A stretch of DNA of 64,000 nt, taken from the NCBI GenBank assembly GCA_947487205.1, contig CANKVU010000001.1, forward strand, positions 310,001 to 374,000, written 5' to 3'. Shown here in pieces: positions 53,308-54,109 of this stretch. Source of the DNA: an uncultured Paracoccaceae bacterium (GTDB lineage: Bacteria > Pseudomonadota > Alphaproteobacteria > Rhodobacterales > Rhodobacteraceae). The notes under the pieces are model-generated. The model was not told where the DNA came from. It did not search any database and saw only the letters and a program-made list of their open reading frames with translations. The position numbers and the translations under genes are program-made. Each line of letters begins with the position of its first letter. The first letter of the stretch is position 1.

Positions 53308-53652
<345 letters not shown>

Positions 53653-53697
53653 TTATGCGCCCAGCTAGTCGCTCGTCTTCCCGGATGCCAGCGGGTG

Positions 53698-53726
53698 TTG
53701 GCGCAGAGCTGGGGATGTTCTATATT
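53698..53726 (+). promoter_or_regulatory. Sigma-70-type promoter of the OB-fold gene
   Basis: TTGGCG (53698-53703) and TATATT (53721-53726) with a 17-bp spacer. The -10 lies inside the LexA box. The expected transcript start (about 53733) is at or just before the ATG at 53735, implying a leaderless mRNA. Confidence 0.6.
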
Positions 53727-53731
53727 TGTTC
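53717..53731 (+). promoter_or_regulatory. LexA (SOS) box, alphaproteobacterial type
   Basis: GTTC-TATATTT-GTTC, an exact match to the GTTC-N7-GTTC direct repeat bound by LexA in Rhodobacter and relatives. It overlaps the -10 and ends 3 nt before the start codon, an ideal spot for repression. Confidence 0.8.
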
Positions 53732-53734
53732 CTT

Positions 53735-54109
53735 ATGACGCCCCGCTCTCCCTTCTGGCCGCGGCCGCCCTCGGCCCTGCCCCATGGCTGGCTCGACCGC
53801 CCGCCCGACGGCGCGCGCGTGACCGTGGCGGGGCTCGTGCTGCTGCGGCAGCGGCCGGGCACCGCGAAGGGGGTCGTGTTCCTGACGCTCGAGGACGAGA
53901 CCGCGACCTGCAACGTCATCGTCTGGCGCAAGGTCTACGAGCGGTTCCGCCGCGCAGTGATCGCCGGACGCTGCCTGCGTGTGACGGGACGGGTGCAGCG
54001 CGGCGGCGGCACCACCCATGTCATCGCGGAGGAGGTGGAGGATATCAGCACGATGCTGGACGACCTGCTGCGGGACGGGACGCCCCGTCCGGACCAAGCC
54101 CCGTCCTAG
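53735..54109 (+). CDS. Stand-alone OB-fold protein resembling the C-terminus of DnaE2 (ImuC)
   Basis: 124 residues. VTVAGLVLLRQRPGTAKGVVFLTLEDET followed by VIVWRKVYERFRRAVIAGRCLRVTGRVQRGGG and VEDISTMLDDLL (read in parts) matches the C-terminal OB-fold of error-prone polymerase DnaE2, down to the fold's VAGLV-RQRPGTAKG-LEDET run. None of the polymerase, PHP or thumb domains is present, and the usual C-terminal SRDFH end is also missing. A LexA box and a -10 sit immediately upstream, so it is probably DNA-damage induced and leaderless. It may be a remnant of a deleted imuA-imuB-dnaE2 cassette or a small single-stranded DNA binding helper. The stop shares CTAG with the convergent transporter gene. 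Confidence 0.78.
   Translation: MTPRSPFWPRPPSALPHGWLDRPPDGARVTVAGLVLLRQRPGTAKGVVFLTLEDETATCNVIVWRKVYERFRRAVIAGRCLRVTGRVQRGGGTTHVIAEEVEDISTMLDDLLRDGTPRPDQAPS

What the first reader, a model, noticed from the sequence alone, without database searches (positions are those of the whole stretch)
53698..54109. SOS-controlled, probably leaderless gene encoding only the OB fold of error-prone polymerase DnaE2
An exact LexA box (GTTC-N7-GTTC, 53717-53731) overlaps a -10 (TATATT) that has a -35 (TTGGCG) 17 bp upstream; the predicted transcript start is at or next to the ATG (53735), so there is no room for a ribosome site. The product is a 124-residue protein matching only the C-terminal OB-fold of DnaE2/ImuC, without any polymerase domain. 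In alphaproteobacteria the imuA-imuB-dnaE2 cassette is LexA-controlled, so this looks either like a deletion that joined the cassette's operator to its last segment, or a repurposed small SOS protein (single-stranded DNA binding, decoy, or regulator of another translesion polymerase). The rest of the reading frame is intact and lacks the canonical end of DnaE2, arguing against a very fresh truncation.
Basis: partly seen in the sequence, partly recalled or inferred. Interest (0 to 1): 0.75.

Follow-up and report, generated by a model that had tools for sequence, protein, structure and literature searches.

The report
Error-prone polymerase split into two genes
In many Rhodobacter-like bacteria the damage-induced, mutation-making DNA polymerase DnaE2 is encoded in two separate pieces at distant places in the genome; this small gene is the missing last piece and carries its own DNA-damage switch.

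Summary
In detail: window 53735-54109 encodes 124 residues, the OB fold of DnaE2, with a LexA box on the -10, 3 nt before the ATG.

The window gene supplies exactly the absent part, so DnaE2 here is a naturally split polymerase. imuA, imuB, DnaE2 body and OB lie on four contigs, each with a LexA box.

Of 198 family genomes, 82 have both halves. Six have a body without OB, each with the OB site missing from or cut in the assembly; one nearly closed genome has the OB without a body. Split bodies form one clade, and the OB sits at one conserved site. On a species-tree proxy the split state changed at least 8 times, and both halves went together in 8 of 8 independent pairs. One genome with fused DnaE2s keeps a decayed OB at that site.

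Best explanation (0.82): the OB works in trans as a small SOS-induced subunit of DnaE2. Binding, LexA control and leaderless start are inferred. Six full-text searches showed no description; one paper notes OB-less DnaE2s without saying where the OB went.

The parts
53735..54109 (+). stand-alone DnaE2 OB-fold gene (124 aa), proposed separate C-terminal subunit of split DnaE2
   Evidence: body half at G000:C14:71732-74629 minus
53717..53731 (+). LexA box GTTC-N7-GTTC, 3 nt before the ATG, overlapping the -10
   Evidence: exact in 15 of 16 split-genome OB genes at 1-3 nt from the ATG
53698..53703 (+). -35 element TTGGCG
   Evidence: TTGGCN 17 bp before the -10 is the best-scoring site in 7 of 16
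53721..53726 (+). -10 element TATATT inside the LexA box; predicted start of transcription at or next to the ATG
53756..53785 (+). residues 8-17, WPRPP..LP segment, proposed docking segment replacing the covalent linker (inference)
   Evidence: W8, P11, P12 invariant in 15 aligned split OBs; not seen before the OB in the 21 of 27 fused rows printed
53308..53631 (-). 2Fe-2S ferredoxin gene, divergent conserved neighbour marking the OB locus (not part of the machine)
   Evidence: divergent neighbour in 16 of 16 split genomes, gap 99-138 nt, 400 nt in G033; best model fdx_isc at 64 bits, below its cut-off of 132

Best explanation
The window gene is one half of a naturally split DnaE2 (ImuC). An ancestor of many lineages of this alphaproteobacterial family came to encode the polymerase body (PHP, polymerase core, clamp motif) and the OB domain as two unlinked genes, each with its own LexA box. 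On DNA damage, LexA is cleaved and both genes, with imuB and imuA at two further loci, are derepressed; the OB gene is probably read from a leaderless transcript. The OB protein then docks in trans on the end of the OB-less body, perhaps through its WPRPP segment, and does what the tethered OB does in fused relatives (helping to hold clamp, template or polymerase conformation during translesion synthesis). SHOWN HERE: complementary halves in one genome, one clade of split bodies, one conserved OB site, co-retention and co-loss, LexA-box sequences, purifying selection. INFERRED: LexA control and leaderless start (from sequence), physical association, role in synthesis, docking segment.
For: Own genome: DnaE2 body matches NF004225 5-939 of 1047 with 1201 bits, the window gene 949-1039. 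The body keeps PPDIDVDF, the second Asp motif and an xLPLF clamp motif in 16 of 16 (PLPLF in 13). Survey of 60 genomes (own included): 16 split genomes have both halves; other DnaE2s carry the OB inside a large frame, apart from contig-edge fragments such as G034 and G035; G022 looked split only because a contig is cut inside a fused gene. 198 family genomes: both 82, body only 6, OB only 2, neither 108. Body-only cases: no close ferredoxin orthologue in the assembly (G081, G198, G216, G178) or its contig ends there (G101, G134). Split bodies are one clade (43 rows, support 100). OB site: beside the same ferredoxin in 16 of 16. DnaE1 species proxy (37 genomes): the split state changes 9 times, at least 8 on supported branches; body and OB go together in 8 of 8 independent pairs, sign test p 0.008. 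Fossil OB (53% over 51 residues, E 8e-13 against this locus, 1.5e-11 among 22 loci) beside the ferredoxin in G015, which has fused DnaE2s and whose sister G033 is split; reversed queries gave nothing there. dN/dS of OB and body alike. LexA boxes: OB 15 of 16 exact; body 10 of 16 exact plus 6 with GAAC-N7-GAAT; imuB 14 of 16 exact. No room for an intein: at most 42 residues before VAGLV in the OB, and the body ends 15-73 residues from the thumb motif.
Against: No physical or genetic interaction data. G088 (about 100% complete, 7 contigs) keeps an open OB frame with a LexA box but no body, so the OB can outlive its partner, at least for a while; it is not among the 37 genomes. G072 has a split pair plus a fused DnaE2. 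The OB tree is weak: with 14 of 27 fused rows the split OBs were one clade (99/97), but with all 27 they were not (0% of bootstrap trees); 14 of 16 group together (93/89) and G014 and G027 fall just outside on unstarred branches. One clade is not rejected (p-AU 0.17), but it is not shown by the OB alone. Split OBs lack the SRDFH C-terminus that ends 21 of 27 fused proteins read, so the pair does not restore the whole of DnaE2. Much raw co-occurrence reflects shared ancestry; only 8 contrasts are independent, and the OB trait was entered as equal to the body trait because searches showed identical sets.
Confidence: 0.82

Rival explanations
1. The two halves have gone separate ways: the body works alone, and the OB is now an independent SOS-induced single-strand-binding or regulatory protein.
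For: The body is retained OB-less; OB-less DnaE2s and DnaE3s are noted in PMC3919608 (passages). G088 keeps the OB without the body. The fold model resembles RPA/CST and tRNA-synthetase OBs.
Against: OB and body go together in 8 of 8 contrasts; the OB is decayed in G015, which has fused DnaE2s; every body-without-OB genome found has the OB site missing or cut in the assembly.
Confidence: 0.11
2. The OB acts mainly with another partner (ImuB, the clamp, or replicative DnaE1) as a polymerase-switching factor, and co-occurs with the OB-less body because the whole mutasome is inherited together.
For: In 16 of 16 split genomes the ImuB match breaks in two near residue 160; in the 5 split rows printed this is an insert of roughly 35-45 residues, absent from fused G017, G030, G022 and G001. 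In E. coli Pol III alpha the OB contacts the clamp (PMC4703070, passages).
Against: Only the body lacks an OB; the DnaE1 match runs on into the OB part of the model. The OB sequence is most like DnaE2.
Confidence: 0.05
3. A decaying leftover of a truncated cassette without function.
Against: Stand-alone OB present in 84 of 198 genomes, dN/dS 0.15-0.39, conserved promoter geometry.
Confidence: 0.01

Closest known systems
DnaE2/ImuC of ImuA-ImuB-DnaE2 mutasomes (NF004225, PRK05672)
   Same: Body carries the polymerase core, Asp motifs and xLPLF clamp motif; OB is the matching C-terminal domain; LexA boxes; imuA and imuB present
   Different: Two polypeptides from two unlinked genes; no SRDFH end; parts on four contigs in the window's genome
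OB-less DnaE2 sequences noted by Timinskas et al. 2013 (PMC3919608, passages read)
   Same: DnaE2 lacking CTD and OB
   Different: The passages read do not say which organisms or that the OB survives as a separate gene
Split-intein cyanobacterial C-family polymerase (mentioned in PMC3919608, passage read)
   Same: C-family polymerase encoded in two pieces
   Different: No room for intein halves here; the split is at the OB boundary, in DnaE2, so the product should stay two chains
Split imuA'-imuB/dnaE2 cassettes (PMC6511836, PMC3919608, passages read)
   Same: Mutasome genes at separate loci, LexA-regulated
   Different: There whole genes are separated; here a gene itself is divided
iPolY plus ImuB-C as a 'split ImuB' in DnaE2X systems (PMC12926913, passages read)
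   Same: A mutasome protein divided into separate domains
   Different: Another protein is divided; DnaE2 fission not mentioned in the passages read

Membership tests
DnaE2/ImuC error-prone polymerase (NF004225) | Whole-protein score above the curated cut-off of 939 bits | tested here: not met
   Window protein 100.2 bits over positions 948-1039; the C14 body alone 1202.1 bits, met
DnaE2/ImuC error-prone polymerase (NF004225) | Catalytic Asp motifs in the body | tested here: met
   PPDIDVDF and KxDxLxLGML in 16 of 16 split bodies; that these are the catalytic motifs is recalled
DnaE2/ImuC error-prone polymerase (NF004225) | OB domain in the same chain as the core | tested here: not met
   Body ends at profile 939; OB on another contig
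ImuA-ImuB-DnaE2 SOS mutasome | imuA and imuB present in the genome | tested here: met
   imuB C16:25556-27154, 49% identical to the Y-family-like gene directly upstream of dnaE2 in fused G011 (named ImuB from that position, since NCBIfam gives only sub-cut-off Pol IV matches); imuA-like C9:25009-25332, NF033429 E 2.9e-11 but 43.6 bits, below its cut-off of 150
ImuA-ImuB-DnaE2 SOS mutasome | LexA box upstream of each part | tested here: met
   Own genome: OB 53717-53731, body C14:74640-74654, imuB C16:25511-25525, imuA C9:24749-24763
ImuA-ImuB-DnaE2 SOS mutasome | Contiguous cassette | tested here: not met
   Four contigs of the draft: C1, C9, C14, C16
ImuA-ImuB-DnaE2 SOS mutasome | DNA-damage induction and requirement for mutagenesis | not testable with these tools
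   needs expression and mutation assays
Split-intein DnaE | N- and C-intein at the break | tested here: not met
   Body tails of 15-73 aa and OB leaders of 26-42 aa leave no room for recognisable intein halves; no intein model was run separately
Single-strand binding protein (SSB, PF00436) | Score above the gathering cut-off of 26 | tested here: not met
   12.6 bits
Leaderless gene | Transcript starts at the start codon | tested here: inconclusive
   -10 ends 6-8 nt before the ATG in 14 of 16 by best score; no 5'-end data

The most novel reading that the evidence does not exclude
The detached OB is a regulated, exchangeable subunit: a separate leaderless SOS gene lets the cell set, through its dose and timing, when the body becomes fully active, so that mutagenesis needs two independently induced halves to meet (a two-key gate), with the ImuB insert as a co-evolved part of the split complex.
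Probability: 0.22. Interest if true: 0.87.

Novelty: new variant of a known kind. Interest (0 to 1): 0.75.

Why it matters
What the OB domain does in C-family polymerases is disputed: ssDNA binding versus clamp contact, as discussed in PMC4703070 (passages). A polymerase that nature has cut exactly at the OB boundary, in about 80 of 198 sampled genomes (nearly one per genus), lets the domain be added, removed, titrated or swapped without engineering. It also means that genome surveys which discard truncated DnaE2s or overlook small OB genes may misjudge translesion capacity in this family, and the relatives offer a series (fused, dispersed cassette, split, replaced) for how a multi-subunit mutasome is taken apart.

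Tried and rejected
Structure: only one of five AlphaFold models was good (mean pLDDT 81; others 46-56), and fold search gives generic OB folds (tRNA synthetases, RPA, CST), which does not discriminate; the PDB sequence search is weak too (archaeal RPA14 E 0.006, Pol III alpha E 0.15). G022 looked split; rejected, because its contig of 217,585 bases is cut inside a fused gene. G121 looked truncated; rejected, fused in one frame. G508, outside the family, has a 183-aa OB frame; rejected as a decayed remnant that still ends in SRDFH. The DnaE1 tree had the wrong strand for G000 and G006; discarded and redone. ImuB picking failed; redone by coordinates, where fused rows G011, G029, G023, G009 and G005 were still read on the wrong strand and G015 gave only 32 residues; none of these six was used. 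Split-intein idea rejected. Class-wide search (385 genomes, listing cut): short-frame OBs with E below 1e-50 only in the window's family (G000, G234); weaker short frames lie mostly near contig ends, of which only G508 was examined. My notes say 9 of 16 bodies with exact boxes; the recount is 10. Family counts were transcribed by hand, whose listings are cut; five truncated bodies are contig-edge fragments, and searches scored only the best candidates per genome. A few OB matches list a stop inside the matched stretch (e.g. G187, G196, G093, G177, G172), not examined one by one. Plasmid search: the 15 records shown carry fused, annotated error-prone polymerases or no annotation; 646 more were not listed.

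Full report
WHAT IS THERE. The window stretch reads as described: LexA box 53717-53731, TTGGCG-17-TATATT promoter at 53698-53726, ATG 53735, 124 codons, stop 54107-54109. Sequence similarity is to the end of the error-prone polymerase model NF004225 (positions 948-1039 of 1047). Pfam calls it a generic nucleic-acid-binding OB fold. AlphaFold gives a five-stranded OB with a C-terminal helix (best of five models pLDDT 81, the others 46-56); fold comparison cannot tell the OB families apart.

THE OTHER HALF. A search of the window's own genome (4.18 Mb, 82 contigs) with the whole NF004225 model found, besides the DnaE1-like match on C13, the window gene and a weak fourth match, a DnaE2 on contig C14 (71732-74629, minus strand, 965 aa) that matches positions 5-939 with 1201 bits and stops there. 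It lacks exactly the part that the window gene encodes. It keeps both Asp motifs and the PLPLF clamp motif that PMC3919608 reports for alphaproteobacterial DnaE2. Its own LexA box (C14:74640-74654) ends 10 nt before its ATG. imuB lies on C16 (box C16:25511-25525) and an imuA-like gene on C9 (box C9:24749-24763). The mutasome is thus spread over four contigs, with a LexA box at each part. I named ImuB from its position directly upstream of dnaE2 in fused relatives and its Y-family similarity; no ImuB model was matched, and the ImuA match is below its cut-off.

HOW GENERAL. In 60 genomes the same pattern appears in 16 including the window's: a body ending at about position 937-962 plus a short-frame OB elsewhere. 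A seventeenth, G022, is a fused gene cut by the end of a contig. In 198 genomes of the family, nearly one per genus, 82 have both halves, 6 a body without OB, 2 an OB without body, and at least 82 a fused DnaE2 (one, G072, has both arrangements) (transcribed by hand). The OB gene is the divergent neighbour of the same 2Fe-2S ferredoxin gene in 16 of 16 split genomes, 99-138 nt away (400 nt in G033). Of the five named loci, three are stand-alone OBs with that ferredoxin and a LexA box (Ca. Rhodobacter lobularis NZ_LFTY01000002.1, a Planktomarina MAG JAPKEA010000035.1, Tropicimonas sediminicola NZ_FZOY01000001.1), one is fused (Gemmobacter caeruleus NZ_VKKX01000015.1) and one is cut by a contig end. 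The fixed site let me check the exceptions. In G198, G216 and G178 no ferredoxin match is in the assembly and in G081 only a distant one (43%); in G134 the contig starts inside it and in G101 ends 222 nt beyond it. Of the OB-only genomes, G098 has a body fragment at a contig edge. G088, in 7 contigs, is the one genuine exception: OB and box, no body. In 385 genomes of the class, strong short-frame OBs occur only in the window's family (cut listing); one candidate elsewhere, G508, is a decayed remnant.

HISTORY. Split bodies form one clade (43 rows, support 100), with G017 and G030 as the nearest fused relatives. The OB alone (108 columns) is too short to settle the same question: with all 27 fused rows, 14 of 16 split OBs group together (93/89), while G014 and G027 fall just outside on unstarred branches; a single clade is not rejected (p-AU 0.17) (the earlier tree, with 14 fused rows, did show one clade). 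Inside the split set, body, OB and DnaE1 trees share the groups G000+G002, G003+G008+G012 (in DnaE1 with G001, G009 and the first pair inside) and G004+G007+G013. With the shared site, the simplest reading is one fission with both halves descending together although unlinked. In G017 imuB is on a different contig from the still-fused dnaE2, and in G030 it lies beside it in opposite orientation, which suggests that the cassette came apart before the gene did (inference). On a DnaE1 tree of 37 genomes the split state changes 9 times, at least 8 on supported branches. Since the body tree needs only one change, this means repeated loss of the split pair or replacement by fused dnaE2 genes. In 8 of 8 independent pairs body and OB go together (sign test p 0.008); the OB trait was entered as equal to the body trait because searches gave identical sets, and G088 is not in this set. 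Of 18 fused or DnaE2-less genomes with 1.5 kb readable beyond the ferredoxin, none has a box within 400 nt or an intact OB there, but G015, sister to split G033, keeps a fossil: 53% identity over the last 51 residues (E 8e-13 against that locus, 1.5e-11 among 22 loci); reversed queries gave no match there. The OB seems to be discarded when its OB-less partner is gone or replaced. Both halves are under similar purifying selection (dN/dS 0.15-0.39 for OB, 0.15-0.28 for body, leaving out the near-identical pair G007/G013).

DETAILS THAT BEAR ON MECHANISM. The box-to-ATG gap is 1-3 nt in 15 of 16 OB genes, and the best -10 ends 6-8 nt before the ATG in 14 of 16, so a leaderless transcript is likely but unproven. 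The OB boxes are GTTC-GTTC in gene direction (15 of 15); exact boxes near the starts of bodies (10) and imuB (14), and that of the own imuA, are GAAC-GAAC, so the OB operator was not simply copied from the body. Split OBs share an N-terminal WPRPP..LP segment (invariant W and two P in 15 aligned), and both halves retain part of the junction (body ..HPxxLLRxxLTP, OB ..LPHxxL), which suggests duplication followed by complementary loss (inference). Split OBs lack the SRDFH end that closes 21 of 27 fused proteins read. In 16 of 16 split genomes the ImuB match is interrupted near residue 160; in the five rows printed this is an insert. In E. coli Pol III the OB bridges fingers, thumb and exonuclease and contacts the clamp, and OB mutations reduce synthesis (PMC4703070, passages).

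LITERATURE. Searches for DnaE2 with OB fold, OB domain, split, LexA/imuABC and Rhodobacterales terms showed, in their listings and in the passages I then read, no description of an OB supplied in trans. PMC3919608 states that several DnaE2 sequences lack the OB domain (passages). The 2026 survey PMC12926913 discarded strongly diverged or truncated sequences before building trees (passages). Subscription papers and preprints were not searched.

VERDICT. A new variant of a known kind: an SOS mutasome whose polymerase is itself split at the OB boundary. That the two genes are the complementary halves of one DnaE2 is close to certain; that they act together in trans is strongly supported by co-loss and decay but awaits a binding or genetic test.

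Noticed in passing
L145:5551-7161 (own imuB) and other split genomes: ImuB of split genomes has an extra segment after about residue 160 (SGDAIDQEARATRSRA..-like), absent from the four fused relatives compared; possible co-evolved contact.
   Followed up: partly
L077, L078, L079, L080, L081, L082, L083 (split bodies): Seven same-genus split bodies share a C-terminal tail (GR.F..A.GL.RS.AW...KC.S.R-like) of unknown role; the window's own genome and G002 lack it.
   Followed up: no
L204:2139-2291 (G015): Decayed remnant of the OB gene beside the ferredoxin in a genome with fused DnaE2s.
   Followed up: yes
L216 and L232 (G088): Genome in 7 contigs with an open OB frame and LexA box but no DnaE2 body; possible recent loss or independent OB function.
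   Followed up: partly
L229 (G508): Decayed mutasome remnant: short imuB-like and dnaE2-like frames in pieces, ending in SRDFH, in a single-contig genome outside the family.
   Followed up: partly
G000:C5:22589-22614 and C5:76819-76844: Overlapping tandem GTTC-N7-GTTC-N7-GTTC arrays, possible double LexA sites; target genes not assigned.
   Followed up: no
window 53632-53734: Short divergent intergenic region between the ferredoxin and the OB gene; whether LexA also affects the ferredoxin is unknown.
   Followed up: no
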